Assembly: GCA_023150535.1 (NCBI GenBank)
Contig: JAKLKS010000002.1
Location: 34,743 to 78,124 of the forward strand
DNA: 43,382 nucleotides
Direction of reading: 5' to 3'
Origin: Planctomycetota bacterium
GTDB taxonomy: Bacteria > Planctomycetota > JAJSAM01 > JAKLKS01
The notes beneath the pieces were generated by a model. It ran no database searches, had not been told where the DNA came from, and saw only the letters and a list, made by a program, of their open reading frames with translations. Position numbers and translations under genes: made by a program. This document shows positions 1,299 through 19,356 of the stretch, one piece after another (within the stretch, counting starts at the first letter, position 1; each line of letters begins with the position of its first letter).

Positions 1299-1353
1299 GA
1301 TAGGGCAAGACTGCTTGCTCGTCACCTCCCTTGTTCCGGTGGCGCAAGCAACT

Positions 1354-1371
1354 CGGCACATGCGGCACGGC
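1354..1371 (+). promoter_or_regulatory. Direct-repeat element A (CGGCAC-ATG-CGGCAC-GGC)
   Basis: Two copies of CGGCAC lie 9 bp apart, followed by GGC, in the gap between divergent genes starting at 1298 (minus) and 1517 (plus). The same architecture occurs at 3158, 13637 and 16125, each time between divergent genes. It could be an operator. The opposite strand also reads C-R-M-C-R in frame with the leftward gene, so a coding explanation is not excluded here. Confidence 0.4.
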
Positions 1372-1516
1372 AGAGGGCCTCTGCTCAAGTACCCTTTCGC
1401 CGACGAGAGACCACGCCCGCAGTCTCACGAGAGGAGATCCTCCGCCGGTACTTCCCTTCCCTAGCCGCATCGCTGCCCAGACCGCTGCCGAAGCGTCGTC
1501 GAAGGCGGAAGCCCGC

Positions 1517-2188: not shown

Positions 2189-2202
2189 TAGGGACGCCGC
2201 CC

Positions 2203-3126: not shown

Positions 3127-3157
3127 GGGACCGAAAGCGTACCACCCAAGCGCCATC

Positions 3158-3175
3158 CGGCACACCCGGCACGGC
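3158..3175 (+). promoter_or_regulatory. Direct-repeat element B (CGGCAC-ACC-CGGCAC-GGC)
   Basis: This has the same two-copy CGGCAC, 9-bp period architecture as element A, and lies between divergent starts at 3126 and 3217. Elements A and B differ only in the 3-nt spacer. If the leftward gene begins at 3192, the element is coding on the minus strand as C-R-V-C-R. Confidence 0.4.
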
Positions 3176-3216
3176 GCAGGGTTGGGCTTCATGTGCCCCA
3201 AACGCGGTGACTGTGC

Positions 3217-3843: not shown

Positions 3844-3921
3844 CTCCCCTGCCGGGCGTTTGATCTCGACGGCGAGGCCGACGAGCGGTGGGATTTCAGA
3901 GCGTGGCGGCTAGTCACGTGA
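3844..3921 (+). pseudogene. In-frame C-terminal tail homologous to end of JAMM gene
   Basis: These 25 codons plus a stop follow the TGA at 3841-3843 in the same frame. The stretch R-A-F-D-L-D-G-E-A-D-E-R-W-D-F then R-A-W-R-L-V-T matches the JAMM protein's R-A-F-Q-L-D-D-E-A-E-D-G-W-D-L then R-A-W-R-L-V-R. The match is visible at the DNA level too (CGGGCGTTT, GAGGCCGA and AGAGCGTGGCGGCT shared). It is either a tail cut off by a nonsense codon or the scar of a lost JAMM-like copy. Confidence 0.6.
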
Positions 3922-3977
3922 CTCTCCCGAACTCTGCCCCATGTGCGTTCGCGATGTCGACGTACTTCGAACTTAAG

Positions 3978-5117: not shown

Positions 5118-5204
5118 CTATCAAACCTCCCTCACCGAACGCGTCCTGAAGCCGCGAATCATCGCCTCAAACACCGATCGAGTCAAGCACTTGGAGGCCC
5201 AGAC

Positions 5205-6083: not shown

Positions 6084-6488
6084 GGCTTCTCCTCCGGGGG
6101 CCGGGCCGGATTCTCCCAGATTCCCCGACAGATTCGGGCCCCTTCGGCGTTCTCTTGGCATGGAGGCACAAGAACGCTTCTCTCCCTGGCCCGCACGGCG
6201 GTGCCCGCGGGTCCTGCTCCTCGGGCTGCCACCGTGCCCGGGGTGGCTCCCATGGCCGCGCGAGGTGGCCGATGTGGCTGAGTGGCAGGAGGCTCTGGGG
6301 CACGGGTTCGACGGGAGGAGCTGCCGTGGAGCCTGGGCCTCGTCCCGGATGGAGGTTCAGCCGGGCAGGCGCTCTCCACCGAGGTTCTCCACCGCTGTCG
6401 GGGGGCGGGGGTAGTCTTCAAGTTGCGACGGCCGTATCTGGCGTCCCCGGTAGCGGTTGTGACTTCTCCAAGGTAGGCAACGGAGTCC
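6084..6488 (+). other. 405-nt non-coding gap between divergent genes
   Basis: I find no convincing gene between the NUC1 lipoprotein (minus) and the restriction-modification operon (plus). It must hold promoters for both, but no clear -35/-10 pair stands out. A weak variant of the island's direct repeat (TGGCAT then AGGCAC, spacing 2 instead of 3) is at about 6156-6169. The stretch near 6272-6325 has tRNA-like fragments but no acceptor pairing. Confidence 0.5.
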
Positions 6489-7547
6489 ATGGCAAACAGC
6501 AAGGGCCACAAGGCGCTCGACCTCACTTCTGCAGGCCGAGATGCCCCGGGAGTCCGGTTCATCGACCTCTTCGCCGGGATTGGGGGCATCCGCCTCGGAT
6601 TCGAGCGCGCGGCGGCTGCTGTTGGCCTATCGACTGACTGCGTGTTCTCCTCCGAGTGGGATCGGTTCAGCCAAGTGACATACCGCGAGAACTTCGGCGA
6701 GGAACCGGCGGGCGACATCACGCAGGTTGAGGCAGATTCGATCCCGAAGCACGATGTTCTTCTGGCCGGGTTCCCTTGCCAGCCCTTCTCGATTGCGGGG
6801 GTGTCGAAGAAGAACGCGCTCGGCCGTCCTCATGGCTTCAAGTGCAAGGAGCAGGGCAACCTCTTCTTCGAGATCGCGCGGATCCTCGAGGACCGTGGCC
6901 CCCCCGCCTTCATGCTCGAGAACGTCAAGCATCTCCGCAGGCATGACGGCGGCCGGACTTACCAGGTCATCATGGACACGCTGACCGAGGAGCTCGGCTA
7001 CACGGTCAAGGACATGGTCTACGACGCGCGCGAAGTCGTCCCGCAGCACCGGGAGAGGATCTTCATCATCGGCTTCCTCGATCCCGTGCTCGCTTCCCGT
7101 TTCCGCTTCCCAGATCTCCACGGTCCCCAGCCCACGCTGGGGAGCATCATGGACGAGGATGTAGAGGCCAAGTACACGCTGACGAGCCACCTGTGGAACT
7201 ACCTCAAGGCGTACAAGGCGAAGCACCAGAGCAGCGGGAACGGCTTCGGGTACGGGCTCTTCGGCCCCGACGATGTTGCCAGGACACTGAGCGCCAGGTA
7301 CTACAAGGACGGCTCGGAGATCCTCATCCGTCGGAGGGGCAGGAACCCACGCCGGCTCACTCCCCGAGAATGCGCAAGGCTCATGGGGTTCCCAGACTCG
7401 TTCCGCATCGTCGTTTCGGACACGCAGGCCTATCGGCAGTTCGGGAACTCGGTCGTGGTGCCCGTCGTGGAACATGTCGCCACGGCGCTGCTTCAGACGC
7501 TCGCCGAGGCGAACCTCGCGGCGCCGGTCGCGGTTGCCGCGACGTAA
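6489..7547 (+). CDS. C5-cytosine DNA methyltransferase (Dcm family), first of two
   Basis: The 352-residue enzyme transfers a methyl group from S-adenosylmethionine to carbon 5 of cytosine. Motif I is F-I-D-L-F-A-G-I-G-G near residue 23. Motif IV with the catalytic cysteine is F-P-C-Q-P-F-S near 96-102. Motif VI (M-L-E-N-V), motif VIII (Q-H-R-E-R-I-F-I-I-G) and motif X (G-N-S-V-V-V-P-V-V near the C-terminus) are all present, so it should be active. The stretch between motifs VIII and IX, which sets target choice, is short. It opens an operon with a Mig-type glycosylase, an EcoRII/PspGI-type endonuclease, Vsr, a second methyltransferase and a MORC-like ATPase. By association it should methylate the site cut by that endonuclease. 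ATG 6489 has only a weak GGAG 4 nt upstream. Confidence 0.93.
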   Translation: MANSKGHKALDLTSAGRDAPGVRFIDLFAGIGGIRLGFERAAAAVGLSTDCVFSSEWDRFSQVTYRENFGEEPAGDITQVEADSIPKHDVLLAGFPCQPFSIAGVSKKNALGRPHGFKCKEQGNLFFEIARILEDRGPPAFMLENVKHLRRHDGGRTYQVIMDTLTEELGYTVKDMVYDAREVVPQHRERIFIIGFLDPVLASRFRFPDLHGPQPTLGSIMDEDVEAKYTLTSHLWNYLKAYKAKHQSSGNGFGYGLFGPDDVARTLSARYYKDGSEILIRRRGRNPRRLTPRECARLMGFPDSFRIVVSDTQAYRQFGNSVVVPVVEHVATALLQTLAEANLAAPVAVAAT

Positions 7548-7561
7548 CTGTCGGAGGACCA

Positions 7562-8287
7562 TTGGCACCGAGTCCTTCCCGCCGGGGAGGTTCCGCACCC
7601 GTACGAGGCTCCTCTAGACAGGGGCATCCCACTCGACTCCCGAGCGCGCGTTGGGTCTGTTCGCTACGGACACGGCTCATCGACTGGTGGATCTCGACCG
7701 AGCGAGACGAGGACTTCCCGTGGCGCCGCTCCGGGCTGCCCCCGTATCGCTCCCTCATAACCGAGATCCTCCTCCAGCGTACTCGCGCGAAGGCGGTTGC
7801 CGGAGTCTACGAGTCGTTCTTCATGCGGTTCCCGGATGCGGAGTCGCTGGGTTCGGCTTCGGTCAGGAGCATCCGCAGTTCCATCCGGTCCCTCGGGCTC
7901 CATTGGCGAGCCGAGAAGCTCCGGGAGCTTGGCGCGGCACTCCGTACCGGCGTGCCGACAACTCCGAAGGCGCTCCTTGCCTTGCCGGGCGTCGGCCCGT
8001 ACGCTGCTGGTGCATTCCTCTCGCTTCACATGGGACGGCGGTCGGCGGCGCCCGATAGCAACGTCGTTCGCATCTACGGTCGAGTCTTCGGCGTAACGGT
8101 CGGTCCGGAATCCCGGCGAAGTGGGTGGTTCCTTCGGCTGAGCGAGCACCTTGTCCCACGACGGAAGTTTCGCGAATTCAACTATGCGCTGCTCGACCTC
8201 GGCCGCGACATCTGCACACCGGCGAGGCCGCATTGCCCCGACTGCCCCATCAAGACGCTTTGCCGCTACGGAGGATGCCGTTCATGA
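7562..8287 (+). CDS. T/G mismatch DNA glycosylase, Mig/MutY-like HhH-GPD
   Basis: This is a helix-hairpin-helix base-excision glycosylase. An I-T-E-I-L-L-Q-R-T helix is followed by the hairpin L-P-G-V-G-P-Y-A-A-G at residues 141-150, catalytic D165, and an iron-sulfur cluster with cysteines 218, 225, 228 and 234 (spacing 6-2-5). Y147 replaces the lysine of endonuclease III, as in MutY and Mig. It lacks MutY's C-terminal NUDIX-like domain, and its tail resembles Mig from the Methanothermobacter plasmid R-M system, which removes T from T:G mismatches formed by 5-methylcytosine deamination. Lying between a C5-methyltransferase and its endonuclease supports that role over adenine removal. No ATG exists in frame near the start. 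I chose TTG 7562 because GGAGG lies 4 nt upstream; a later start would still keep the domain. It overlaps the next gene by ATGA. Confidence 0.82.
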   Translation: MAPSPSRRGGSAPVRGSSRQGHPTRLPSARWVCSLRTRLIDWWISTERDEDFPWRRSGLPPYRSLITEILLQRTRAKAVAGVYESFFMRFPDAESLGSASVRSIRSSIRSLGLHWRAEKLRELGAALRTGVPTTPKALLALPGVGPYAAGAFLSLHMGRRSAAPDSNVVRIYGRVFGVTVGPESRRSGWFLRLSEHLVPRRKFREFNYALLDLGRDICTPARPHCPDCPIKTLCRYGGCRS

Positions 8288-9063
8288 ACCGACGGACGGA
8301 CTCAGAGCTGGAGCGGGTCTTCCGACGCAGGATGCTCTCCCCGGAGGCGGTAGTCACCGCGGCGCTCGAAGCAAAGCTCGTTGGCGAAGCCAACACGGTG
8401 CCGTACATCAAGGCCAACTTCAGCCAGCTCCTTGAGGACCTTCAGAGGGATGCGCACGCCATCTACACGAACGCAGAACGGAACGCCGGTGAGCAGGCCC
8501 TCCGGGAGGTTGCGCTCGCTCGGCTTCGCCCAGGGGACCCTCCGGATCGCGCCGCGGCGGTGCTTGCGGGGATGTTTGACGAGCTCAACGCGTTCTTCCT
8601 CTCCAGGGGACAGTCTCGGAAGTCCCGCGCCGGAGGGGCCTTCGAGACGCTCCTGCACACCCTCTTCCGCCGCCTGGACTACCCCTTCACCGAACAGGCG
8701 GTCATCAACGGCAAGCCAGACTTCCTGATGCCTTCCGAGGACCACTACCGCCGCTACCCGATGGACTGCATCATTTTCACGGCGAAGCGGACGCTCCGCG
8801 AGCGGTGGAGGCAGATCGTGACGGAGGGGACTCGCGGCCTCGGCTTCTACCTCGCGACGATAGACGAGAAGGTCTCCACCCCGCAGCTTGGGGAGATGCT
8901 GGCAAACCGCATCCACCTGGTGGTCCCCGCCTCCATCAAGGCCAGGGTGCCTCACTATGCAGCCGCGGACAACGTGCTTCCGTTCGAGGAGTTCTTCCGG
9001 CGGTTCGTCGATCCGAAGGTGCAGGACTGGCGGGAGAGGGGCATCTCCCATGCGTCGCCGTAG
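8284..9063 (+). CDS. Type II restriction endonuclease, EcoRII-C/PspGI type
   Basis: The 259-residue protein matches the EcoRII catalytic domain. S-R-K-S-R-A-G-G-A-F-E121 is followed by G-K-P-D145-F-L-M-P-S and then A-K-R-T-L-R-E-R-W-R-Q at 167-177, which supplies the catalytic lysine and the conserved RWRQ helix. A late L-V-V-P strand also fits. It lacks the N-terminal effector domain of EcoRII itself and is close in length to the stand-alone enzyme PspGI. These enzymes cut CCWGG or related sites; the exact target cannot be read from the sequence. ATG 8284 overlaps the glycosylase stop by ATGA, so translation is coupled. Protection is expected from the methyltransferases at 6489 and/or 9612. 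Confidence 0.85.
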   Translation: MNRRTDSELERVFRRRMLSPEAVVTAALEAKLVGEANTVPYIKANFSQLLEDLQRDAHAIYTNAERNAGEQALREVALARLRPGDPPDRAAAVLAGMFDELNAFFLSRGQSRKSRAGGAFETLLHTLFRRLDYPFTEQAVINGKPDFLMPSEDHYRRYPMDCIIFTAKRTLRERWRQIVTEGTRGLGFYLATIDEKVSTPQLGEMLANRIHLVVPASIKARVPHYAAADNVLPFEEFFRRFVDPKVQDWRERGISHASP

Positions 9064-9145
9064 TTGAATTGGAGCGCGCGTCGAGCATACGTGCGCCGTG
9101 GTCGATTAGCCGCCGCTACAATGCCGCATCACTGGAGGCGAAGAC

Positions 9146-9625
9146 ATGAGCCCGATCCCGAGCACCCGAATGGAACAACGCGGCGGGCGGCGCATGGGCC
9201 CAAGTCGGCACCCCCCAACTCAACGGCCCTCGCGGGAGACATCCGCCCGCATGCGACGAGTACGCAGCCGCGGCACCGGCCTCGAGGCCGCGATGGAGTC
9301 CCTTCTTCGGGAGCTCGGGACGCCCTTCGAGCACCAGCCCCGCCTCCCGGGGCACCCCGACTTCCGGCTCGTTGGGACCAACGTGTTGGTCTTCTGCGAC
9401 TCGGCCTTCTGGCACGGCAGGAACGAGCGGGACCGGTCCGGCGCTTCCTTCCGAAGGAACCGGGCCTTCTGGATCGCCAAGCTGGAGGCGAACCGGCGGC
9501 GGCGCGTGAACCGGCTTCTCCGGCACGCTGGATGGACGGTCCTGCGCTTCTGGGATGACGACGTGCTCAAGAACCCCCGGGTGGTAAAGAAGAGAGTGGA
9601 GAGGTTTGCCCATGCCGTCCGCTGA
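9146..9625 (+). CDS. vsr: Vsr-type very-short-patch mismatch endonuclease
   Basis: The 159-residue protein has an N-terminal S-R-G-T-G-L-E-A-A helix, L-P-G-H-P-D-F, the catalytic strand V-F-C-D85-S-A-F-W-H90, F-W-I-A-K-L-E-A-N and a closing G-W-T-V-L-R-F-W strand. These are the landmarks of Vsr in order. Vsr nicks 5' of the T in T:G mismatches at deaminated 5-methylcytosine sites and normally accompanies Dcm-type methyltransferases. One deviation is that the usual V-D-G-C-F-W-H reads C-D-S-A-F-W-H here; the aspartate and FWH are kept, while the zinc-ligand cysteine is replaced. ATG 9146 has GGAGG 8 nt upstream. The end overlaps the second methyltransferase by 14 nt. Confidence 0.85.
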   Translation: MSPIPSTRMEQRGGRRMGPSRHPPTQRPSRETSARMRRVRSRGTGLEAAMESLLRELGTPFEHQPRLPGHPDFRLVGTNVLVFCDSAFWHGRNERDRSGASFRRNRAFWIAKLEANRRRRVNRLLRHAGWTVLRFWDDDVLKNPRVVKKRVERFAHAVR

Positions 9626-10715
9626 TACGCGCCCCACCGCCATAGATCTGTTCAGCGGAGCCGGCGGTCTGACTCTCGGGCTGGAGAAGGCCGGGTTCCG
9701 CGTCGTGGCCGCGGTCGAGGTGAGCGAGAAGGTCTCCGAGACCTTCCGAGCCAATCACCCCAACGTGGTGTTGCTCACGAAGGACATCTGCAACGTCACC
9801 GGGAAGGACGTCCTCGAGGCCGCGGGCGTCGAGTCGGTGGACCTCGTCGCGGGGTGCCCTCCATGCCAGGGGTTCTCCAAGCTCACGGACAAGTACGAGA
9901 AGGAGGACCCGCGGAATCGGCTCGTCCTGGAGATGGCGCGGCTCGTCGTCGAGCTCAAGCCGCGCACGCTGATGATGGAGAACGTCCCGGGGCTCGCCCA
10001 GCGCGGGAAGCTGCTCCTCGACGCGTTCCTCGGGACCGTGCGCGACGCCGGGTACCAGGTCGACGCCAAGGTCCTCCAACTCGCGAACTACGGCGTCCCG
10101 CAGTCGCGGCGCCGCCTCGTCGCTCTCGGCGGGCTCGGTTTCGCCGTCCCGATGCCGAAGCCCACGCACTCCCGGCTCGGCGACAAGATGGCCAAGCTCG
10201 CGCGCTGGCTGACGCTCAAGGACGCGCTTGCGGGCCTAAACGAGCGGCCCGTGACCTTCAAGCAGGCCAAGCGGGACGGCGGTCCGCAGAAGCACGAATG
10301 GCACGTCGTCGGAGATCTGTCTGAGGTCACCCTGGACCGGCTCCGTGCCGTGAAAGCCGGCACGAGCCGCGAGACCCTGCCGATGGACCTCAGACCCAAG
10401 TGCCACCAGAAGGTGAAGGCTGGGTTCCAGAACGTCTATGGCCGAATGGCTTGGGACAAGATCCCGCCGACCATCACCGGCGGCTGTACGACGCCGTGTA
10501 AGGGCCGCTACGGGCATCCCCGACAGCTGCGGACCATCTCCGTGCGCGAGGCCGCACTCATCCAGACGTTCCCGAAGTCCTACAAGTTCGTGACCGACGA
10601 GATGGGGACCGCGTGCGCAATGGTCGGGAATGCTCTGCCGCCGAAGTTCGCCGCCATTGCCGCCACGCAGTGCTTGGCCTCTCTTCCCGGGTCGAGGGTG
10701 ACAGCCGATGGCTAG
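9612..10715 (+). CDS. C5-cytosine DNA methyltransferase, second of two
   Basis: The 367-residue enzyme has motif I (A-I-D-L-F-S-G-A-G-G-L near residue 11), the catalytic P-P-C-Q-G-F-S near 82-88, M-M-E-N-V-P-G, G-V-P-Q-S-R-R-R and the late motif V-G-N-A-L-P-P. It is complete and clearly different from the first methyltransferase, with a much longer region between motifs VIII and IX, so the two probably recognise different sequences or different strands of an asymmetric site. I chose ATG 9612; a TTG at 9606 in frame is possible. GGAGAGG lies upstream inside vsr. The gene overlaps vsr by 14 nt and the MORC-like gene by 8 nt, placing it in a tight operon. Confidence 0.93.
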   Translation: MPSADTRPTAIDLFSGAGGLTLGLEKAGFRVVAAVEVSEKVSETFRANHPNVVLLTKDICNVTGKDVLEAAGVESVDLVAGCPPCQGFSKLTDKYEKEDPRNRLVLEMARLVVELKPRTLMMENVPGLAQRGKLLLDAFLGTVRDAGYQVDAKVLQLANYGVPQSRRRLVALGGLGFAVPMPKPTHSRLGDKMAKLARWLTLKDALAGLNERPVTFKQAKRDGGPQKHEWHVVGDLSEVTLDRLRAVKAGTSRETLPMDLRPKCHQKVKAGFQNVYGRMAWDKIPPTITGGCTTPCKGRYGHPRQLRTISVREAALIQTFPKSYKFVTDEMGTACAMVGNALPPKFAAIAATQCLASLPGSRVTADG

Positions 10716-12699
10716 GAGAGGACGACCCTCGCCCGAAAACGGGGTGCCGACGCCAGCGGTCCTCTTGCCCGGTCGGACTCCCGACGAGCTGAAACTGTCC
10801 TTCGCCGGCAACATCGTGAAGCACCTAGGCGTCCAGATGTATGCGGGGCGCCCGGTCCCGGCCATCGCCGAGCTAGTCTCCAACGCGTGGGATGCAGATG
10901 CGAGGGTCGTTGAGGTGAAGGTGCCTCTAGACGTCCCGTGGGAGCAGGACAACGAGAAGCACTTCATTGAGGTCGTCGACAACGGCAACGGCATGACGTG
11001 GGAAATGGTCCGCGATGCCTACCTGGATGTGGGCCGTGACCGTCGAGAGGCGGAGAAGACAGATCGTTCCCCTGGAGGACGACGGCTCCAAGGCCGAAAG
11101 GGGATTGGGAAGCTCGCCGGCTTCGGCATCTGCGACACCGTCGAGGTCCAGACCGTCGCCAAGGCGAAAGACCGGTCATTGGATGACCACGTGCTGATCT
11201 GGTTCAGCATGTCGCTCGCAGACCTCAAGAAGGTCGACAAGGGGCCAGCGCCCGTCACGGTGCGCTTTGCTGGTCCCGTATCCAAGGCGCCGGAGGGCGG
11301 ACGCACGACGCAAGGCACGACGGTGGTCCTCCGCCAGCTCCATGGCCGCCGAGCACAAAACGGCGAGCGGTTCCACAACGGAATGGCGCAGCGATTCCTG
11401 CTGCTACCGAAGTTCGCAGTCACCATCAACGACCAGGCCCTGCGCGAGGAGAAAATCAAGCTCCAGTGGCGCTGGCCCGCCAAGGGGTGGACCGACGACG
11501 AGGTGAAGGGTTGCGGTCCCGTGCAATACTGGATCGGATTCACGGAGAAGCCTCGCAAGCAGGACGAGGGCGAACTCTCCGGCCTGCTTCTCTACACGCG
11601 CGGAAAGGTGTCCCAGGAGGCGACGTTCTTCGAGATCAGCGGCGGCGTCACGGGCCAGCACGGGCTCCGGTACCTGGTCGGCATGGTGAAGGCCGAGTGG
11701 CTCGATGAAGACGGCGCCGACCTGATCGCCACCCATCGAGGCTCTATCGCATGGGAGAGCCCGCAGGGCCACGCGCTGCAGGAGTGGGGTCAGGGCCTCG
11801 TGCGGAGGCACTTGGCCGAGTGGGCAAAGCGGCGCGCCAAGCTGAGGGAGAAGACCGTCCTCACACTGAAGCCGGAGGTCCGCACTCGCATCGAGCGGCT
11901 CTCCGAACCGTACAAGGATGTAGCGGTCAGGTTCATCCAGAAGTTCCAGTCTGTCGAGATGGAGGTCGACGAGTTCGAGGACCTACTCTCGTGGTTCTTG
12001 GACGCCCTTGAGAATGCGACGCTTCGCAACATCATCGAGAAGCTCCGGCATGCTGATGTCGCCGACGTCAAGAGCCTCGACGACATCTTCGAGCGTATGC
12101 AGATCCGGACGGCTGCCAACCTCCTCAAGATCGTGGATGCCAACCTCGCTGCGATTGCCGCACTGGAGAAGATGAAGGACACGGACGCGCGAGAGCGCGG
12201 CGTAATCGCCAAGCACTTGGAGAGGAACCCGTGGCTCATCCATCCGTCGTGGCTGCTGAGCAAGGCGGAGGGTAGGGTCACAACCTGGCTCAAGGTCGAG
12301 TTCAAACTCGACAGTCCGGGCAAGGACACGAAGGACAGGGCCGACTACTTCTGCGTGGCGGTGGGAGGAACGCTCCACATCGTCGAGATCAAGCGCGGCG
12401 CCTACGTTGCGAGGGAGAAGGACATTCTCCAGGCGGACAAGTACCGCAAGTACGTCGAGCAGCGCTTCAAGGACCTCACCGAGCACGATGCGGTCAGGTA
12501 CGGTCATGTCCAAAGCCACCTGGTTTCCGCAGAACTACACCAGGATGCTCGGAGCCTCTCGACTGCGTATGCCGACAAGGGGTGGGTCTCTTTCACTACC
12601 TGGGACGACCTCGTTGAGAGGGCGAAGCTGAGCCACCAGCAGTTCCGCGCGGAATTCGAGGCGATTAGTAAGCGTGCGGAGCCTGCCGCGGAGGATTAG
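10708..12699 (+). CDS. MORC-like GHKL ATPase with C-terminal nuclease-like domain
   Basis: The 663-residue protein starts with a GHKL ATP-binding fold. The N-box A-I-A-E-L-V-S-N-A-W-D-A is near residues 52-63, V-V-D-N-G-N-G-M near 89-96, and the lid G-R-K-G-I-G-K-L-A-G-F-G near 130-141. This matches Hsp90/MutL/MORC ATPases. The middle is helical. The C-terminus has D-Y-F-C-V-A-V then H-I-V-E-I-K-R near 545-562, the D...E-x-K pattern of a PD-(D/E)XK nuclease, reminiscent of DUF4263/Shedu-type nucleases. Prokaryotic MORC relatives embedded in restriction-modification operons have been described; they are thought to act as ATP-driven DNA loops or clamps. Here the gene is the last of the methyltransferase/EcoRII-type operon, overlapping it by 8 nt. 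It ends 5 nt from the convergent radC. Confidence 0.8.
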   Translation: MARRGRPSPENGVPTPAVLLPGRTPDELKLSFAGNIVKHLGVQMYAGRPVPAIAELVSNAWDADARVVEVKVPLDVPWEQDNEKHFIEVVDNGNGMTWEMVRDAYLDVGRDRREAEKTDRSPGGRRLQGRKGIGKLAGFGICDTVEVQTVAKAKDRSLDDHVLIWFSMSLADLKKVDKGPAPVTVRFAGPVSKAPEGGRTTQGTTVVLRQLHGRRAQNGERFHNGMAQRFLLLPKFAVTINDQALREEKIKLQWRWPAKGWTDDEVKGCGPVQYWIGFTEKPRKQDEGELSGLLLYTRGKVSQEATFFEISGGVTGQHGLRYLVGMVKAEWLDEDGADLIATHRGSIAWESPQGHALQEWGQGLVRRHLAEWAKRRAKLREKTVLTLKPEVRTRIERLSEPYKDVAVRFIQKFQSVEMEVDEFEDLLSWFLDALENATLRNIIEKLRHADVADVKSLDDIFERMQIRTAANLLKIVDANLAAIAALEKMKDTDARERGVIAKHLERNPWLIHPSWLLSKAEGRVTTWLKVEFKLDSPGKDTKDRADYFCVAVGGTLHIVEIKRGAYVAREKDILQADKYRKYVEQRFKDLTEHDAVRYGHVQSHLVSAELHQDARSLSTAYADKGWVSFTTWDDLVERAKLSHQQFRAEFEAISKRAEPAAED

Positions 12700-12704
12700 G
12701 CCGA

Positions 12705-13379
12705 CTACAGCTTTCTAGGTGCCTCTCCGAGCAGCCCCCGCTCCAAAAAGCTCACGTAGCTCCCGTCCCCCACCACCACGTGATCGAGCACTCGGATGCC
12801 CACGAGGTCGGCCACGGCGCACAGGCGGCGGGTGATCTCCACATCCTCGACGCTCGGTGTCGGGTCCCCGCTCGGGTGGTTGTGGACAAAAACGAGGGCA
12901 CCGGCGCTGTCCCGGATGGCCGGCGCGAAGACCTCCCGGGGATGGACCAGGGAAGCCGTGAGGCTGCCCTCGCTGACCCGGTAGTCCCGCATGACCCGGT
13001 TCTTCCCGTCGAGGAGCACGGCGAAGAACTGCTCCTTCGGCAGGTCCTTGAGGCGCGGGGAGAAGTGGCGGTAGATGTCCGAGCCGCACCGGAACCGCTC
13101 CCCGCGGCGGAGTCGGGACTCGGCTGCGCGACGCGAGAACTCTCCCACGGCCCGGAGGCGGTAGGCGCGGTCTTCCGAAACCCCGTCTACGGTGCGGAGC
13201 TCGTCGTAGGAGGCCGCGCCGAGTTGGCGGAGGTCCCCGTAGCGTTCAAGGAGCCGCCCGCCGACTTCGCGGGCTCGCTCAGTGGGGTAGCCGGGGCCGC
13301 GCAGGAGAGCCGACACGACGTCTATGTCCTGGACCTGGTCGAAGCGGATTGCCTCCTCGGCCACGCGGTAGCGGGTCAT
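12705..13379 (-). CDS. radC: RadC-family JAMM protein
   Basis: The 224-residue protein has RadC's full layout. An N-terminal helix-hairpin-helix region (residues about 20-85, L-R-T-V-D-G-V) is followed by the JAB domain with E116, H166-N-H168-P-S-G-D-P-T-P-S and D179, the JAMM metal ligands. RadC proteins are frequent on mobile elements; an early role in DNA repair was withdrawn and the true activity is unsettled. ATG 13379 has GGGAGG 7 nt upstream and overlaps the stop of a small upstream ORF by ATGA, so the two are probably translated together. It is the second JAMM protein of the island, and unlike the one at 1517 it is full length. Confidence 0.92.
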   Translation of the reverse strand: MTRYRVAEEAIRFDQVQDIDVVSALLRGPGYPTERAREVGGRLLERYGDLRQLGAASYDELRTVDGVSEDRAYRLRAVGEFSRRAAESRLRRGERFRCGSDIYRHFSPRLKDLPKEQFFAVLLDGKNRVMRDYRVSEGSLTASLVHPREVFAPAIRDSAGALVFVHNHPSGDPTPSVEDVEITRRLCAVADLVGIRVLDHVVVGDGSYVSFLERGLLGEAPRKL

Positions 13380-13549
13380 GCCTTTCCCTCCCGCACGAAG
13401 GACTCGAACCGGACGGCTGCCCGGAGGACGAGCTCGGTCTTCTGGTCCGGGGAGCCGACGCTCAGCGAGTGGAGGGCGCTGGCGGACTTGAGGCAACTCA
13501 TGCGCAGGAGCTGCACTTCCCTGGAGGACGTCATCGCGTGCATGGACAT
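13376..13549 (-). CDS. Small hypothetical protein coupled to radC
   Basis: A 57-codon ORF ends in TGA at 13376-13378, overlapping the radC ATG by 4 nt, which suggests a real gene. Candidate starts are ATG 13549, 13543 and 13534; none has a convincing ribosome site. The peptide is rich in serine and basic residues (M-S-C-L-K-S-A-S-A-L-H-S-L-S) with no recognised domain. An AT-containing stretch (TTGATATGG) about 28 nt upstream of 13549 may be its promoter. Confidence 0.4.
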   Translation of the reverse strand: MSMHAMTSSREVQLLRMSCLKSASALHSLSVGSPDQKTELVLRAAVRFESFVREGKA

Positions 13550-13605
13550 CACGGCATGACGTGGCAACGGGACCATATCAACTTCGACCCTGTGCGGGGC
13601 CGATA

Positions 13606-13651
13606 GTGCCGAGTGCTCCGTGTCCCGGCAAGCACCGGGCACTCTCGGCAC
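13606..13651 (+). repeat. Large imperfect hairpin upstream of cdc6-like gene
   Basis: The outer arms GTGCCGAG (13606-13613) and CTCGGCAC (13644-13651) pair perfectly. The inner arms GTGTCCCGG (13620-13628) and CCGGGCAC (13635-13642) pair with one bulged T. The 46-bp structure lies between the divergent radC unit and the Orc1/Cdc6-family gene. It could be an initiator-binding site, an operator, or an attachment-related structure; its right arm contains direct-repeat element C. Confidence 0.5.
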
Positions 13652-13654
13652 GCC
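13637..13654 (+). promoter_or_regulatory. Direct-repeat element C (GGGCAC-TCT-CGGCAC-GCC)
   Basis: This is the third occurrence of the 9-bp-spaced GGCAC repeat, between divergent starts at 13549 and 13697. Unlike A and B it is not in frame with a likely neighbouring protein, which favours a DNA-level role. A sequence GGATATACC follows at 13668-13676, about 25 nt upstream of the ATG of the Orc1/Cdc6-family gene. Confidence 0.45.
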
Positions 13655-13696
13655 CTACGGTCCGACCGGATATACCCCTTCGGCCATGACCACGGG

Positions 13697-14740
13697 ATGG
13701 CCCTGCACGAGGTTCCACCCGTGGTCCACCGGCACGACGTGCTGGAGGAACTCCACCTGCCCGCGGCGCTCGTGGCGCGCCAGGCGCAGGCCGCGGAGCT
13801 CCGGTTCGAGCTGACCTTCGGGCCGCAGAAGACTGCTGGACATGCGTGGCTTCACGGCCCGCCCGGAGCGGGAAAGACGAGCACGGCGCGGTTCGTGATC
13901 GAGGCTCTGCGCGCCGAGGCCGGGGTGCCGGTCGCCTACGTCAACTGCTGGAAGGCCAACACGGCCTACCTCGCGCTTGCGCAGGCCATCGACGAACTCC
14001 GCATTCTGGGCCTCGACCAGCGGCGGGACGCGCTCTCCCGGCTCGCCGTGCTCTCGAAGGAAGCTGCCCGGCGGCCGTTCGTGCTCGTCCTTGACGAGTT
14101 CGATGCGCTGGCCGCGCCGGACCGGTCGTTCCTGCTCTACACCCTGGCCGAGCTGGAACGGGTGAGCCTCGTGTGCATCGCGGGGTCGCAGGAACCCCTC
14201 GTTGAGTTGGAGGACCGCGTGCGCTCGCGGTTCCGGCCCGTGCAGGTCGCGTTCGCTCGGTACGCGGCAAACGACCTTGTGGCCATCCTGCTAGCCCGTG
14301 CCGAGACCGGACTGACCCCTGGTTCGTGGAGCCGCTCCCAGCTCGAGCGGATCGCTGGAATGTCCAACGGCGACGCGCGCATCGCCATCCAGACGCTCCG
14401 GCGCGCGGCCAATCTTGCCGATCGCGCCGGCGAGGCGTTCCTGACGGACGCTGCGGTGGACAGGGCCTACACGGAGATGCGGGACATCCGGAAGCAGTAC
14501 GCGCTCCGCAAGCTCACGCCGCACCACCGGCTCATCTTCGACCTCGTCCTCGCGGAGAAGGGGCTCTCCGCCAAGGAGCTGTGGTCCCGGTACCTGCAGG
14601 CCGCACGGAGTTATGGGCTTCCACCCATCGCGCTCCGGACGTTCCGGAAGTACGCGAACGTTGAGCTCACGCAGGCGCGGCTGGTCGAGGTCCGGCCCGG
14701 AGGGCCGCGTCGCAATGTCTTCCGGTACTACGCGACCTGA
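13697..14740 (+). CDS. cdc6: Orc1/Cdc6-family AAA+ replication initiator-like ATPase
   Basis: The 347-residue protein has every landmark of archaeal Orc1/Cdc6. An N-terminal P-P-V-V-H-R-H-D-V-L-E-E-L is followed by Walker A G54-P-P-G-A-G-K-T61, the Y-V-N-C-W-K strand, Walker B F-V-L-V-L-D133-E-F-D, sensor 1 region I-A-G-S near 161-164 with D-R-V-R-S-R-F, and sensor 2 G-D-A-R at 225-228. A C-terminal winged helix spans about 275-345 (A-R-L-V-E-V-R-P-G-G). In archaea such proteins bind origin repeats and load MCM. In a bacterial chromosome this suggests an island that replicates autonomously or derives from an archaeal-type plasmid or virus. ATG 13697 fits the family's N-terminus; there is no ribosome site, but GGATATACC about 25 nt upstream would suit a leaderless message. 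It overlaps the integrase tail-to-tail by 13 nt. Confidence 0.87.
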   Translation: MALHEVPPVVHRHDVLEELHLPAALVARQAQAAELRFELTFGPQKTAGHAWLHGPPGAGKTSTARFVIEALRAEAGVPVAYVNCWKANTAYLALAQAIDELRILGLDQRRDALSRLAVLSKEAARRPFVLVLDEFDALAAPDRSFLLYTLAELERVSLVCIAGSQEPLVELEDRVRSRFRPVQVAFARYAANDLVAILLARAETGLTPGSWSRSQLERIAGMSNGDARIAIQTLRRAANLADRAGEAFLTDAAVDRAYTEMRDIRKQYALRKLTPHHRLIFDLVLAEKGLSAKELWSRYLQAARSYGLPPIALRTFRKYANVELTQARLVEVRPGGPRRNVFRYYAT

Positions 14741-15945
14741 GTGGGCGCGGCTGCTCCTGGAGGCGTACTCCTCGCTGCCTTCACCTGCGCCAGCGCCTGG
14801 AGGAAGAGCGGATTCTTCACGAGCTCGGCCATGAGGGACTGTGCCTGCTGGAACTCCAAGGAGCTCTGGTCTTCCGATACCGGTCTCCCCAGAAGCGGCT
14901 GCCAGCACCGAGTGCAGCTGACGGCCGTCGCGAGCACAGTCGCACGGCACTTCGGGCATGAGGGTCGCGTCGGAGCATCTGTCGGATGCTCATCCGCGCG
15001 CCGGAGTCCATGCATCGCGAGTACTGCATTGTCTACGTCTCTCCCCGACAGGTGTACGTAGGTGCGGGGCATGTCCGAGCCTTGGATCCACCCGAAGTAA
15101 GCGTTCATCTGCGCCTCGGTGAACCGGCTCGCGTTGAGACTGGCTCGCGAGTGACGGAAGAGATGGGGATGGACGCGCTTCGCGAGACCCGCGCGAAGCG
15201 CGACTCGCTTGATCATGCGGAGGACTCCCGCGTGAGTCAGGGTGTGGTGCCGATTCCACGGCCCAAGGCTGCACCACAAGGGCGCGTCTGGCTGCCTGAC
15301 GTCGGGATGCTCGGCCAGCCAGGCGAGCAGCACGGGGACTGACTCGACAATGAGGATTCGCCGGCCGCCAGTCTTCCCAGTGACCGTCAGGACGGCGCCA
15401 TTGGGGTCGGGCCGTACGCTCCCGACCCGCATCCCGAGCAGTTCGCCGATCCTCATACCGCTCTCATAGAGCAGCGCGATGATGGCTCGGTCCCGGAGGT
15501 GCTCCGTAGCATTGGCCATGGCGACCGCCTCCGCAGGCGTCAGCAGATCCTCGGGCAGCTTTGTCTCCGAGGCCCGGACGTGCGCTCGTATCCACTTCAC
15601 TTCCGGCGGGTACTCCTCGCTTCGTCGGAGCCACCTCGCGAAGGACCGGAGAATGAGCTTGTAGTCCATCTTGGTGTAGGGGGAGATTGGCTTCGCGTCC
15701 AATCGCCGCACGTAGGCTCTGGCCGACTCCTCGGTGATGGCGGTCAGAGGTCCGTCGAACTGTTCAGCCATCTGTCGGAGGACGAGCGCGTACTTCAGAA
15801 CGCGACGGCTCGACAGGCCGTTCGACAATGAGTCGCGCACAAAGTGGACAATCGCGGCACGGTCGGCATCGACCAAGCCCGGCGCGTCCTTGACGCGGGC
15901 AAGCGCGGTTTCCAGCCGAGCGTCCGTCTTATAGATGTCCTGCAT
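14728..15945 (-). CDS. Tyrosine recombinase/integrase, archaeal-type with zinc ribbon
   Basis: The 405-residue recombinase has an N-terminal SAM-like core-binding domain (about 15-115) and a catalytic domain with the full active site: R165 (G-M-R-I-G-E-L-L), K191 (G-K-T-G-G-R-R), H261-L-F-R264, W286 (G-W-I-Q-G-S) and nucleophile Y296 (T-Y-V-H-L-S-G-R-D-V-D-N). A four-cysteine zinc ribbon follows (C330, C333, C344, C347). The combination of Y-V-H-L-S-G-R-D with a C-terminal zinc ribbon is familiar from archaeal integrases. ATG 15945 has AGGAGG 7 nt upstream. It probably integrates or excises the island; the tRNA-Cys gene at 19195-19269 is a plausible attachment target. Confidence 0.9.
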   Translation of the reverse strand: MQDIYKTDARLETALARVKDAPGLVDADRAAIVHFVRDSLSNGLSSRRVLKYALVLRQMAEQFDGPLTAITEESARAYVRRLDAKPISPYTKMDYKLILRSFARWLRRSEEYPPEVKWIRAHVRASETKLPEDLLTPAEAVAMANATEHLRDRAIIALLYESGMRIGELLGMRVGSVRPDPNGAVLTVTGKTGGRRILIVESVPVLLAWLAEHPDVRQPDAPLWCSLGPWNRHHTLTHAGVLRMIKRVALRAGLAKRVHPHLFRHSRASLNASRFTEAQMNAYFGWIQGSDMPRTYVHLSGRDVDNAVLAMHGLRRADEHPTDAPTRPSCPKCRATVLATAVSCTRCWQPLLGRPVSEDQSSLEFQQAQSLMAELVKNPLFLQALAQVKAARSTPPGAAAPTQVA

Positions 15946-16124
15946 GGGAGTTCCTCCTCGACAAAGGCGCTCTTATGCACGCACTCTCAAGATTGCCCCG
16001 TGGGCTCTGGCCATTCGGGCCGACGCGCGAGGGGGTTGCCGCCTGCAGACCGTGCGCGTCGAACGCATGGTGCGGCGTTTCCCCCGCGCATCCATCGTGA
16101 AGTGCGATGCGGTCGCCTCTGACT

Positions 16125-16142
16125 GGGCATGACTGGCACGCC
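16125..16142 (+). promoter_or_regulatory. Direct-repeat element D (GGGCAT-GAC-TGGCAC-GCC)
   Basis: This is the fourth occurrence of the 9-bp-spaced repeat, between the integrase start (15945, minus) and the helical protein start (16215, plus). It has one transition in each half-site relative to element C and the same GCC tail. It is a candidate operator for the integrase and/or the HerA operon. Confidence 0.4.
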
Positions 16143-16214
16143 CGAGGGGGCATTGTCTTTACCGCCTAAAGAGCTTGATGAGAGCGGCGAGCCGAAAGGC
16201 CCGTTACCGCTTCC

Positions 16215-16601
16215 ATGCCCGACGAATCCCCTCCACCGGCCAACGTCATCGACGAGAAGCTCCGGCTCCTCGGCGAGGCCATCCAGGAGATCGACGACGC
16301 TCTCCTGACCCGGCACAAGCTCACGAAGCGGCACCTGGACCAGATCGACGCGGAGATCGGGGAGGTCCGCTACTACCTTTCGTTCCTTGGCGACCCGTGG
16401 AAGGCCGGGTTCCTCCCCCCGCTGGAGAACCTCCGGGTCACGCTCCACAAGAACATGACCTCGCGACGCCAGAACCGCCGGAACGAGGAGCTCAAGGCCT
16501 GGGCCGACCGTCTGATGCTGCTGGAGAAGCGGCGTGAGCTGGTGATGGAGTTCCGCGCCCTGCTGGCAGCTCGACGGCAGACCCGCGGCCCGGGGCCGTG
16601 A
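16215..16601 (+). CDS. Small helical/coiled-coil protein preceding HerA-like ATPase
   Basis: The 128-residue protein is almost entirely charged helix with heptad-like leucines (E-K-L-R-L-L-G-E-A-I-Q-E-I-D-D-A-L-L) and a second helical block ending L-L-E-K-R-R-E-L-V-M-E-F. No catalytic motif, signal or membrane segment is visible and I do not recognise a family. Its TGA ends 1 nt before the ATG of the HerA-like gene, so the two are almost certainly co-translated, and it may be a structural partner or regulator of that ATPase. ATG 16215 is the only early start; the ribosome site is weak. Confidence 0.7.
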   Translation: MPDESPPPANVIDEKLRLLGEAIQEIDDALLTRHKLTKRHLDQIDAEIGEVRYYLSFLGDPWKAGFLPPLENLRVTLHKNMTSRRQNRRNEELKAWADRLMLLEKRRELVMEFRALLAARRQTRGPGP

Positions 16602-16602
16602 G

Positions 16603-18594
16603 ATGGACATCGAGCGGGTCTTCCAGAAACTCCGACCCGTGCTGGGGCCGCGGCTCGACGATCTGTGGCAGGCGTACCTCCTCTCCGACGCGAAGACGCG
16701 CACCCTGCTGGAGGCATCCCTCCGCGCCGAGCTTGCATCCCTCGGCTCGACCTTCGAGGACGCGGAGATCCTCCTCGTCCCGCCGTCCCCCGAGCGGGCC
16801 GCCGGCGACCTTCCGCTCGGGACCGTCCACTACGCGGGCAAGCCGGTGTGCGAGTTCGGTCTCCGCATCGAGGAGTGCCTCCAGCACATCGGCTGCTTCG
16901 GCCGCTCGGGTGCGGGGAAGACGAACCTCTGCTTCCTGCTCCTGCGCTCGCTCGCCGAGAGGGGCATCCCCTTCCTCGTCTTCGACTGGAAGCGCAACTA
17001 CCGTGACCTCGCGGGGCTCCCGGGCTTCGAGAAGCTCGAGGTCCTGACCGTGGGACGCTCCGTGGCCCCGTTCGAGTTCAACCCCCTGCGGCCGCCGCCC
17101 GGCACCGAGCGCCGCGTGTGGCTCAAGAAGCTCATCGAGATCATGGCCCACGCCTACTTCCTCGGCGAGGGGGTCGAGTACCTCCTCCAGGAGGCGCTGG
17201 ACGCCGTCTACCGGGAGCGCGAGAATCCGACCTTGGCGAACGTGCGCGATTGGCTCCTCGCCTACAACGCCAAGGGACGGCAGGCGGCATGGATGGACTC
17301 GGCGCTCCGCGCGGTCGGCGTGCTGTGCTTCGGCCAAGTCGGCGAGGTCCTGAACAACCCGCGGCCCATGGACCCCGCCAAGCTTCTCGAAGGGTTCGTC
17401 GTCTTGGAACTCGACGCGCTCACCAACTCGGACAAGACGTTCCTCATCGAGTCGCTTCTCCTGTGGGTCCATCACTTCCGTCTCCAGGAGCCGGACCGCG
17501 AGCGCCTCAAGCACGTCGTGGTCATCGAGGAGGCGCACCACGTCCTCCTCCGAAAGAAGCAGGAGGCCACGGGGGAGGAGGCCGTCACCGACATCATCCT
17601 GCGCGAGATCCGCGAGCTCGGCGAGGCCATCGTCGTTCTGGACCAGCACCCTTCGCTCATCTCCAAGCCCGCGCTCGGGAACACCTACACCACGTTCGCC
17701 TTCAACCTCAAGCACCGCGGCGACCTCGCGATGATGGCCGACTCCCTCCTCCTCGACCGCGAGGAGGCCAAGGTCCTCGGTCGCCTCGACGTCGGCTGGG
17801 GCCTCGTCAAGTTGCAGGGCCGCTGGCACCGGCCGTTCCTCGTCAGGTTCCCGCACTTCTCGGTGGAGAAGGGCAGGGTCACGGACGCGATGCTTCAGAA
17901 GTCTCCGGAGCCGTCGCCGAGCATCCTCCCGACTCCTTCCAACCCGCCGGTCAATCCAACGCACGGGCACTCTTCGTCCGGCGTCGTCGCACCTCTTCCA
18001 GGGCCGGAAGAGACGCCTACGGCGTTGGAGAAAGGGGTAGTCAGGTTGATGGCGGACATCCACGAACGTCCGTCATCAACCTTGTCCGAGAGGTTCATTC
18101 GTTGCCATCTTCCTACGGGGTCGGGGGCGCGGTTGCTCAGTTCATCAGTTCGGTCAAACCTCATCTCGTCGGCGTACGTGAAGACGCCGGAGGGAAGGAC
18201 ACGATGGCTGGAACTGACTCCGGCCGGGTCCACCGCCCTCGGCGTCCCCCACCGCAACGCTCGCGAGGGGGGCCCGGAACACCGGTACTGGGTCTTCCGG
18301 ACCAAGGCGTGGCTCGAGTCCCAGGGCTACGCGGTCGAGCGGGAGGTGCCCATTGATGGTGGGGTCGTGGACCTCGTCGCCACCCGGGGGCAGGAGCGCG
18401 TCGCAGTCGAAGTTGAGACCGGGAAGTCGGACGCCCTCGGGAACGTCGCCAGGCTCGCCGGGAAGGGGTTCACGCGGGTACTGGTCGTGGCGGTCAGGGA
18501 CGGCCTCGCTGTCGCTCTACGGCCGCTCCTGGGGGCCGCCGTGGAAGTCGTGGGGCCGCAGGCGGTCGGGAGGTCGGAGGGGCCGGCCGTCTAG
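16603..18594 (+). CDS. HerA/FtsK-like ATPase with C-terminal nuclease-like domain
   Basis: The 663-residue protein has a P-loop G100-R-S-G-A-G-K-T107, then F-L-V-F-D-W-K-R-N-Y, and Walker B H-V-V-V-I-E-E-A-H-H near 304-313, typical of the HerA/VirB4/FtsK class of ring-shaped DNA translocases. After a proline-rich linker (about 430-475) there is a winged-helix-like segment. The C-terminal domain then has G-G-V-V-D-L-V-A-T...V-A-V-E-V-E near 585-604, a D...E-x-E pattern like a PD-(D/E)XK fold with the usual lysine not evident. Archaeal plasmids and viruses often carry HerA-type ATPases, and bacterial defence systems pair HerA with nucleases; here the two functions seem fused. It follows the helical protein by 1 nt and ends in a strong hairpin. 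Confidence 0.82.
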   Translation: MDIERVFQKLRPVLGPRLDDLWQAYLLSDAKTRTLLEASLRAELASLGSTFEDAEILLVPPSPERAAGDLPLGTVHYAGKPVCEFGLRIEECLQHIGCFGRSGAGKTNLCFLLLRSLAERGIPFLVFDWKRNYRDLAGLPGFEKLEVLTVGRSVAPFEFNPLRPPPGTERRVWLKKLIEIMAHAYFLGEGVEYLLQEALDAVYRERENPTLANVRDWLLAYNAKGRQAAWMDSALRAVGVLCFGQVGEVLNNPRPMDPAKLLEGFVVLELDALTNSDKTFLIESLLLWVHHFRLQEPDRERLKHVVVIEEAHHVLLRKKQEATGEEAVTDIILREIRELGEAIVVLDQHPSLISKPALGNTYTTFAFNLKHRGDLAMMADSLLLDREEAKVLGRLDVGWGLVKLQGRWHRPFLVRFPHFSVEKGRVTDAMLQKSPEPSPSILPTPSNPPVNPTHGHSSSGVVAPLPGPEETPTALEKGVVRLMADIHERPSSTLSERFIRCHLPTGSGARLLSSSVRSNLISSAYVKTPEGRTRWLELTPAGSTALGVPHRNAREGGPEHRYWVFRTKAWLESQGYAVEREVPIDGGVVDLVATRGQERVAVEVETGKSDALGNVARLAGKGFTRVLVVAVRDGLAVALRPLLGAAVEVVGPQAVGRSEGPAV

Positions 18595-18607
18595 AACAGC
18601 CGGCCCC
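18579..18607 (+). terminator. Hairpin at the end of the HerA-like gene
   Basis: GGGGCCGGC (18579-18587) pairs perfectly with GCCGGCCCC (18599-18607); the loop holds the gene's TAG stop. There is no T-run, but the 9-bp all-GC stem at the gene end fits a terminator in a GC-rich genome. Confidence 0.55.
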
Positions 18608-18630
18608 CCTTATCCGGGCCCCGGGTAAGG
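18608..18630. terminator. Second hairpin between convergent genes
   Basis: CCTTATCCGG pairs with CCGGGTAAGG (one G-T pair) around a 3-nt loop, directly after the first hairpin and 10 nt before the stop of the minus-strand ORF at 18641. It could terminate that ORF's transcript. Confidence 0.45.
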
Positions 18631-18640
18631 CACTGGCCTT

Positions 18641-18958
18641 CTACGCCCCGCCTTCTTGGAGAATAGGGATGAGGTGGAAGAGCGGGGCAACCCTGGTTTC
18701 CCGTCGGGGGAGAGCATATTGATGCGCGACCCTACCGTCACGCGCCAGTTTGGACAACGGAGGCGCTGGCGACTTCGTGCAGCGAGCTGAAGCTGACCCC
18801 CGACTCCCGATTCCAAACGACGCGGTAAGGAGACCCGGCACGACGCTGACGTTGAGGCGGACCGCCTGCAGGACCCGGGTCAGCATCCGCGCAGTCGGCG
18901 CGAGGCTGGAGAACAGCTGCTCGTTGAAGCCCGCGTTCCTGGCGTAGAAGTCGTCCAT
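18641..18958 (-). CDS. Small hypothetical protein at island edge
   Basis: A 105-residue ORF starts at ATG 18958 with an excellent ribosome site (GGGAGGTG, 4 nt upstream), which is the best reason to believe it. The N-terminus is helical and amphipathic (M-D-D-F-Y-A-R-N-A-G-F-N-E-Q-L-F), followed by a hydrophobic stretch near residues 35-50. The C-terminal half is basic and low-complexity and might not be conserved. No family recognised. It lies between the HerA-like gene and tRNA-Cys, at the compositional border of the island. Two hairpins lie just beyond its stop. Confidence 0.45.
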   Translation of the reverse strand: MDDFYARNAGFNEQLFSSLAPTARMLTRVLQAVRLNVSVVPGLLTASFGIGSRGSASARCTKSPAPPLSKLARDGRVAHQYALPRRETRVAPLFHLIPILQEGGA

Positions 18959-19194
18959 AGGCACCTCCCTGTTGTTGAGAGAGCCGAGGGCAGACTCCGG
19001 CGAGGCCGGCTTCAACTCGCTGCGATGTCAAGGGCGCCGCCGTCGGCGCGTGCCTCAAGGGCACGGCCATTCTACCCGCCCCGCGCAATCGTGCCGTTCG
19101 CGCGGTCCCAAATCCGTCTCAGTGGCGCCCCTGGGAGGTAGCCGCAGAGATCGGCCGCTCCGGCCGAAGTGCCTGCGCCGCAAAGGGATGGAGT

Positions 19195-19269
19195 TGGAGG
19201 CGGCACCCGGATTCGAACCGGGGGATAACGGATTTGCAATCCGTTGCCTTACCACTTGGCTATGCCGCC
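19195..19269 (-). tRNA. tRNA-Cys (GCA)
   Basis: On the minus strand the acceptor stem GGCGGCA pairs with TGCCGCC, followed by discriminator T and an encoded CCA (19197-19195). The anticodon loop reads TTGCAAA with anticodon GCA, and the T-arm has GGTTCGAATCC. The encoded CCA and overall sequence are bacterial. Its 3' end faces the island, the usual geometry when a tyrosine integrase inserts into a tRNA 3' end. Confidence 0.97.
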
Positions 19270-19356
19270 TCGGGAGGCCAGACCCGCAGTATGCCCCGGG
19301 GCCGCCCCCCGGACCACTTTCGGCCCGGGGCGCGGCCCTCCCGCTCCCCCCGCCCC

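What the first reader, a model, noticed from the sequence alone, without database searches (positions are those of the whole stretch)
12705..19269. Archaeal-style replication and integration module in a bacterial chromosome
Seen: an Orc1/Cdc6-family ATPase with winged helix, a tyrosine recombinase with intact active site plus a C-terminal zinc ribbon, and a HerA-like ATPase, all within 5 kb, next to a tRNA-Cys 3' end. Known: Orc1/Cdc6 initiators and zinc-ribbon integrases of this look are typical of archaea and their mobile elements. The host tRNAs encode CCA and look bacterial. Inference: a cross-domain or chimeric integrative element that may replicate through an Orc1/Cdc6-type origin in a bacterium. 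A mis-assembled contig is the main alternative.
Basis: partly seen in the sequence, partly recalled or inferred. Interest (0 to 1): 0.8.

Follow-up and report, generated by a model that had tools for sequence, protein, structure and literature searches.

The report
Archaeal Orc1–HerA–integrase module in planctomycete island
A planctomycete bacterium carries, in a foreign DNA island inserted at a tRNA-Cys gene, a set of genes built from parts of archaeal mobile elements (an Orc1/Cdc6 replication-initiator-like protein, an archaeal-type integrase and a DNA-pumping motor with a nuclease-like tail); the same set recurs in many bacterial phyla, but whether it replicates the element or attacks other DNA is not known.

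Summary
The 13613-14740 protein is a complete Orc1/Cdc6 (AlphaFold pLDDT 86; top Foldseek hits all archaeal/eukaryotic Orc1/Cdc6). The tyrosine recombinase has its catalytic residues plus a zinc ribbon.

It is not a misassembly. Equivalent modules occur in at least nine bacterial phyla, including a complete planctomycete chromosome. The window's Orc1 clade is sister to haloarchaeal plasmid/virus Orc1, and the integrase is nearest to archaeal virus and plasmid integrases. At least two, probably three, separate Orc1 lineages accompany the same HerA family.

The island (at least 54 kb, defence-rich) ends in tRNA-Cys. A 79-bp exact tRNA-Cys copy on another contig, beside a different integrase, probably marks its other end.

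'Replicates through an Orc1 origin' has no positive support: no MCM in the hosts, no iterons, no circular contig, no bacterial plasmid or virus with the module. HerA paired with Orc/Cdc6 is already published as predicted anti-invader 'capture systems'; this module lacks their defining insert in Orc1. Best reading: a distinct variant in which Orc1 positions or loads a HerA motor-nuclease.

The parts
1..19194 (.). Right-hand part of a low-GC genomic island (continues at least 34.7 kb further left on contig C222)
   Evidence: GC 0.61-0.71 against 0.73-0.82 to the right of tRNA-Cys; left part of the contig also low-GC, with two more Cdc6-like genes
12705..13496 (-). RadC/JAB-family gene, divergent from Orc1
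   Evidence: PF04002 E=3.6e-42; RadC-like genes lie near HerA in 11 loci
13613..14740 (+). Orc1/Cdc6-family AAA+ ATPase with winged helix (probable start 13697)
   Evidence: TIGR02928 6.9e-40; AF2 pLDDT 86.5, Foldseek top 2v1u/1fnn/2qby E about 1e-20; tree; no insert between lid and winged helix
14728..15945 (-). Tyrosine recombinase of archaeal mobile-element type
   Evidence: PF00589 2.6e-16; best hits archaeal viruses 202 bits and haloarchaeal plasmids 195 bits, bacterial plasmids 79 bits; tree
14905..14958 (-). C-terminal zinc ribbon of the recombinase (CPKC...CTRC, residues 330-347)
   Evidence: both CxxC pairs conserved in L035, L046, L110 and archaeal virus integrases
16215..16601 (+). 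Small helical HerA partner ('P190' family), directly upstream of HerA
   Evidence: HMM of 63 neighbours finds it at E=1.8e-23; alignment; no Pfam match
16603..18594 (+). HerA-like DNA translocase with C-terminal winged helix and nuclease-like domain
   Evidence: PF01935; AF2 model and Foldseek to HerA, DndH-C, VirB4; family of 148 hits
18271..18567 (+). PD-(D/E)XK-like C-terminal domain of HerA (residues 557-655)
   Evidence: YraN match 4.9e-4; E581, D590, E603, E605 in 98-100% of 55 full-length homologues; secondary structure
19195..19273 (-). 79-bp attachment repeat: tRNA-Cys(gca) gene 19195-19269 plus 4 bp; exact copy at contig C46:5695-5773
5205..12699 (.). Defence cargo on the island: non-specific nuclease, two C5 methylases, EcoRII-C, Vsr-like, BbrUII/HgiDII-type restriction enzyme

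Best explanation
A horizontally spread module of archaeal mobile-element parts sits on a defence-rich island integrated at tRNA-Cys of a planctomycete chromosome. Shown by sequence and structure comparison: canonical Orc1/Cdc6, archaeal-mobile-element-type zinc-ribbon integrase, P190 + HerA operon with winged helix and nuclease-like tail, and repeated co-inheritance of Orc1 with this HerA. Inferred: Orc1 binds DNA through its AAA+ and winged-helix domains and loads or positions the HerA ring, as Orc1/Cdc6 loads MCM in archaea; HerA then pumps DNA and its tail cuts it, P190 being the adaptor. Because hosts lack MCM and the motor carries a nuclease-like domain, the most likely role is conflict with other DNA (a variant of the HerA/FtsK-Orc 'capture' theme) carried and spread by the integrase-bearing element, rather than ordinary Orc1-MCM replication.
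For: Orc1 fold and motifs. Orc1-HerA link: 5 of 6 Orc1-positive genomes are among the 16 of 392 with HerA, Fisher p=3e-7. Cdc6-like gene within 8 kb of HerA in 21 of 77 HerA loci, as near as 71 bp. The same order partner-HerA-Orc1-integrase in Planctomycetota and Bacteroidota. At least two, probably three, Orc1 lineages beside one HerA family: one bacterial clade rejected, p-AU 5e-6; clades A+B together p 0.015. Conserved nuclease-like residues in HerA. No MCM in the bacterial hosts. R-M cargo. Published HerA-Orc/Cdc6 mobile neighbourhoods predicted as defence (PMC10853773).
Against: No experiment. The window's Orc1 clade is sister to true plasmid/virus initiators and has none of the nuclease-like inserts that mark the published capture systems. 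PADLOC matches are weak. Many HerA loci show no Orc1 within reach. The C-terminal motif is ExE, not the usual ExK, so nuclease activity is unproven.
Confidence: 0.45

Rival explanations
1. True replicon: Orc1 is the replication initiator of an integrative plasmid-like element that excises through its own integrase and replicates, with HerA serving as replicative or transfer motor instead of MCM.
For: Window Orc1 clade (100/99) is sister (97/88) to haloarchaeal plasmid and virus Orc1; integrase of the same archaeal mobile-element type next to it in three genomes; RadC gene and a hairpin beside orc1.
Against: No iterons, no circular contig among 18, no bacterial plasmid, phage or viral contig with the module seen, no MCM; the module stands in a complete chromosome with no integrase or flanking repeat found within about 50 kb.
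Confidence: 0.3
2. Decayed cargo: remnants of several archaeal-type elements accreted at tRNA-Cys, no longer working together.
For: Three Cdc6-like genes of different age on one contig, one broken; the att-proximal integrase on C46 is a different protein.
Against: orc1, int, P190 and herA of the window are all intact with conserved active sites; synteny kept across phyla.
Confidence: 0.2
3. Misassembled or contaminated contig joining archaeal DNA to bacterial DNA.
For: MAG of 529 contigs; a 10-N scaffold gap just left of the window.
Against: The same module in many bacterial genomes including a complete one; a second tRNA-Cys-bounded island in a relative; tRNA-Leu near tRNA-Cys also in a relative; the window from HerA to tRNA-Cys has no gap.
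Confidence: 0.03

Closest known systems
HerA/FtsK-Orc/Cdc6 'capture' systems (Nucleic Acids Res. 2024, PMC10853773)
   Same: HerA/FtsK motor coupled with an Orc/Cdc6 AAA+ ATPase, winged helix and restriction-nuclease-like domain in mobile, defence-rich neighbourhoods
   Different: Here Orc1 is canonical, with no nuclease-like insert between AAA+ and winged helix; a P190 partner and a zinc-ribbon archaeal-type integrase are present; the Orc1 falls among archaeal plasmid/virus initiators
Orc1/Cdc6 initiators of haloarchaeal plasmids and viruses
   Same: About 30-36% identity over the AAA+ and winged-helix domains; sister clade
   Different: Bacterial host without MCM; genomically linked to HerA; no iterons found
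Integrated mobile elements of Thaumarchaeota (PMC6563490)
   Same: tRNA-integrated elements with tyrosine recombinase, some with Cdc6/Orc1
   Different: Archaeal hosts; no P190-HerA-nuclease module described in the passages read
HerA-NurA, SIR2-HerA, DUF4297-HerA and DndH
   Same: HerA-type ring motor with a nuclease or effector partner (structural matches)
   Different: Partner here is a small helical protein, the nuclease-like domain is fused to HerA, and an Orc1 gene lies nearby

Membership tests
Orc1/Cdc6 initiator family | AAA+ ATPase with Cdc6-type lid and C-terminal winged helix; intact Walker A/B, sensor 2 | tested here: met
   the window copy scores below the TIGR02928 cut-off (137 of 181 bits), several siblings score above it
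Orc1/Cdc6 initiator family | Recruits MCM at an origin with ORB/iteron repeats | tested here: not met
   No MCM-level match in the bacterial hosts, no iterons; the fold membership stands, the replication role does not follow
Archaeal mobile-element tyrosine recombinases | Catalytic R-K-HxxR-H/W-Y and grouping with archaeal virus/plasmid integrases | tested here: met
   placed with archaeal integrases apart from the bacterial ones sampled (98/99), inner order unresolved
HerA/FtsK translocases | DUF87 P-loop motor core with Walker motifs and HerA fold | tested here: met
   ring assembly not testable
HerA/FtsK-Orc/Cdc6 capture systems (PMC10853773) | Inactive nuclease domain inserted between AAA+ core and winged helix of Orc/Cdc6 | tested here: not met
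   Segment between lid and mid winged helix is 41-47 residues in all three bacterial clades, 45 in Aeropyrum Orc1
HerA/FtsK-Orc/Cdc6 capture systems (PMC10853773) | HerA/FtsK, Orc/Cdc6, wHTH and an active REase in one neighbourhood | tested here: inconclusive
   First three met; REase-like HerA tail conserved but catalysis unknown
tRNA-integrated genomic island | Direct repeat of tRNA sequence at both ends, integrase, foreign composition | tested here: inconclusive
   79-bp repeat and integrase found, but the second end is on another contig; GC step met

The most novel reading that the evidence does not exclude
A bacterial integrative element that replicates from an Orc1/Cdc6-dependent origin, with Orc1 loading HerA instead of MCM: an archaeal-style initiator working with a different ring motor inside bacteria.
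Probability: 0.15. Interest if true: 0.88.

Novelty: new variant of a known kind. Interest (0 to 1): 0.62.

Why it matters
Orc1/Cdc6 initiators are the textbook divide between archaeal/eukaryotic and bacterial replication. Finding canonical ones, some of the archaeal plasmid/virus lineage, in at least nine bacterial phyla, in two or three separate lineages, each time beside the same HerA motor-nuclease, points to a reusable Orc1-HerA partnership outside archaea. It makes a direct question testable: can Orc1/Cdc6 load a ring motor other than MCM, and is it used to copy, move or destroy DNA?

Tried and rejected
Misassembly: rejected. Viral-contig scans with Orc1, HerA and integrase: no convincing relatives. 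Bacterial plasmids/phages: the 40 best listed Orc1 plasmid hits and all 10 phage-collection hits are haloarchaeal. Iteron search: nothing clearly above shuffles. Circular contigs: 0 of 18. Empty-site search in the same order: tRNA-Cys found in relatives but flanks do not match well enough. An internal att repeat for the window's own integrase: none found. Membership in the published capture systems: key insert absent.

Full report
What is there. The window is bases 34743-78124 of a 78,124-base contig (C222) in a 4.4-Mb, 529-contig genome. The phylum is inferred to be Planctomycetota, because same-phylum genomes G323 and G385 hold contigs of the same length as named planctomycete contigs. To the right of 19.2 kb the DNA has GC of 0.73-0.82; to the left it is 0.61-0.71. 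The step lies at a tRNA-Cys gene whose 3' end faces the low-GC side. Within 6.5 kb left of it are, in order, RadC(-), Orc1/Cdc6(+), a tyrosine recombinase(-), a 128-aa protein(+) and a HerA-like protein(+).

Orc1/Cdc6. The protein matches the archaeal orc1/cdc6 family TIGR02928 (6.9e-40, below its cut-off) and archaeal Orc1 structures by sequence. Its AlphaFold model (pLDDT 86.5) has Aeropyrum Orc1, Pyrobaculum Cdc6 and Sulfolobus Cdc6-1 as best structural matches, E about 1e-20. All ATPase motifs and the winged helix are intact. Two further Cdc6-like genes, one intact at 37% identity and one broken, lie left of the window on the same contig.

A conserved module, not an accident. Searching 392 genomes of the phylum with Orc1 alone gave 6 positive genomes; HerA alone gave 16; they share 5 (Fisher p=3e-7). 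A HerA scan of 84,980 species genomes found 148 relatives; the best 80 come from many bacterial phyla and three archaeal MAGs. In 63 loci a small helical gene ('P190') lies by HerA, usually directly upstream; the window's 128-aa gene belongs to it (E=1.8e-23). Cdc6-like genes lie within 8 kb of HerA in 21 of 77 loci, from Planctomycetota, Chloroflexota, Acidobacteriota, Bacteroidota, Thermodesulfobacteriota, Pseudomonadota, Ignavibacteriota, Lentisphaerota and Kiritimatiellota. The order P190-HerA-Orc1-integrase is shared by a planctomycete (L035) and a Bacteroidetes MAG (L046); the window holds the same genes in a permuted order. A complete chromosome (G286) carries P190-HerA-Orc1.

Where the parts come from. 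In a maximum-likelihood tree the window's Orc1 belongs to a bacterial clade of 11 rows (100/99) that is sister (97/88) to Orc1 of haloarchaeal plasmids and viruses; two other bacterial clades attach elsewhere among archaeal Orc1. One bacterial clade is rejected (p-AU 4.9e-6), and joining the two larger clades is rejected more weakly (p 0.015; long branches are in play). The integrase has archaeal viruses (202 bits) and haloarchaeal plasmids (195 bits) as nearest annotated relatives, against 79 bits for bacterial plasmids, and shares the zinc ribbon with archaeal virus integrases. HerA is mixed: mostly bacterial, with one member on a 956-kb contig that also carries the archaeal chromosomal Orc1 (L051/L132).

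The integration site. The 79 bp covering tRNA-Cys recur exactly at C46:5695-5773. There the side facing away from the tRNA 3' end carries a different integrase, which ends 144 bp from the tRNA, and a large ATPase-like protein; the other side has GC about 0.77. The simplest reading, not proven, is that C222 and C46 are the two ends of one island of at least 59 kb. A relative (G001) has a 16-kb island in its tRNA-Cys with a 56-bp repeat and its own integrase, so this gene is a recurrent target. The window's own integrase is 3.3 kb from the tRNA and no internal repeat was found for it, so it may not be the enzyme that used this site.

What it does. For an ordinary Orc1 replicon one would expect MCM, iterons, circular forms or plasmid relatives. 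None was found: the best MCM match in each archaeal MAG of the same search is 104-322 bits, in the bacterial hosts at most 41 bits; no iterons; no circular contigs; no bacterial plasmid, phage or viral contig with the module seen. HerA ends in a winged helix and a PD-(D/E)XK-like domain whose E581, D590, E603 and E605 are in 98-100% of 55 full-length homologues, although the motif is ExE rather than ExK. The island carries restriction-modification genes, and the second Orc1 gene is next to a TRADD-N-associated membrane protein gene. This favours a DNA-conflict role, with Orc1 placing or loading the HerA ring; the loader step is inference by analogy with Orc1-MCM.

What is known. A 2024 study described mobile neighbourhoods pairing HerA/FtsK with Orc/Cdc6 ATPases and predicted an anti-invader role (PMC10853773); a 2026 paper extends this to BREX-related systems (PMC12839542). 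The pairing is therefore not new. [quoted passage not shown] in all three bacterial clades here that segment is 41-47 residues, as in Aeropyrum Orc1 (45). With the archaeal-type integrase and the P190 partner, this is a distinct variant. The library searched is open-access only, so a prior description elsewhere cannot be excluded.

Limits. Most genomes are MAGs; absence of MCM or of flanking genes can reflect incompleteness. The survey was seeded with the window's own proteins, which biases the counts. The co-occurrence statistic treats genomes as independent. Function is untested.

Noticed in passing
L182 (contig C46) 1002-5773: Second tRNA-Cys copy preceded by an integrase (4536-5555) and an 839-aa ATPase-like protein with a nuclease-like C terminus but no Pfam match; probably the other end of the island.
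   Followed up: partly
L192/L193 (G001:C111) 4462-20475: A 16-kb island in tRNA-Cys of a same-order relative, flanked by a 56-bp direct repeat with its own integrase.
   Followed up: partly
L024:16669-17958 and 17912-18697: Second intact Orc1 on the contig, divergent from a gene for a TRADD-N-associated transmembrane protein (PF20712), a family linked to immunity.
   Followed up: no
L024 2808-3646 (C222:17550-18388): Broken third Cdc6-like gene, suggesting repeated arrival of related elements.
   Followed up: partly
window 13606-13651: Strong hairpin (GTGCCGAG...CTCGGCAC) just upstream of the likely Orc1 start, about 3 s.d. below shuffles; candidate operator or origin element.
   Followed up: partly
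L036:7866-8942, L102:13947-15041 and 12 other loci: Membrane plus coiled-coil protein family (about 364 aa, no Pfam match) recurrent beside Orc1 and HerA, mostly in the two other Orc1 clades.
   Followed up: no
C222:34733-34742 (end of L024): Run of 10 N (scaffold gap) immediately left of the window, in a region matching a C5 methylase.
   Followed up: no
window 10708-12699: GHKL-ATPase restriction enzyme of the BbrUII/HgiDII kind next to a C5 methylase and a Vsr-like nuclease.
   Followed up: no
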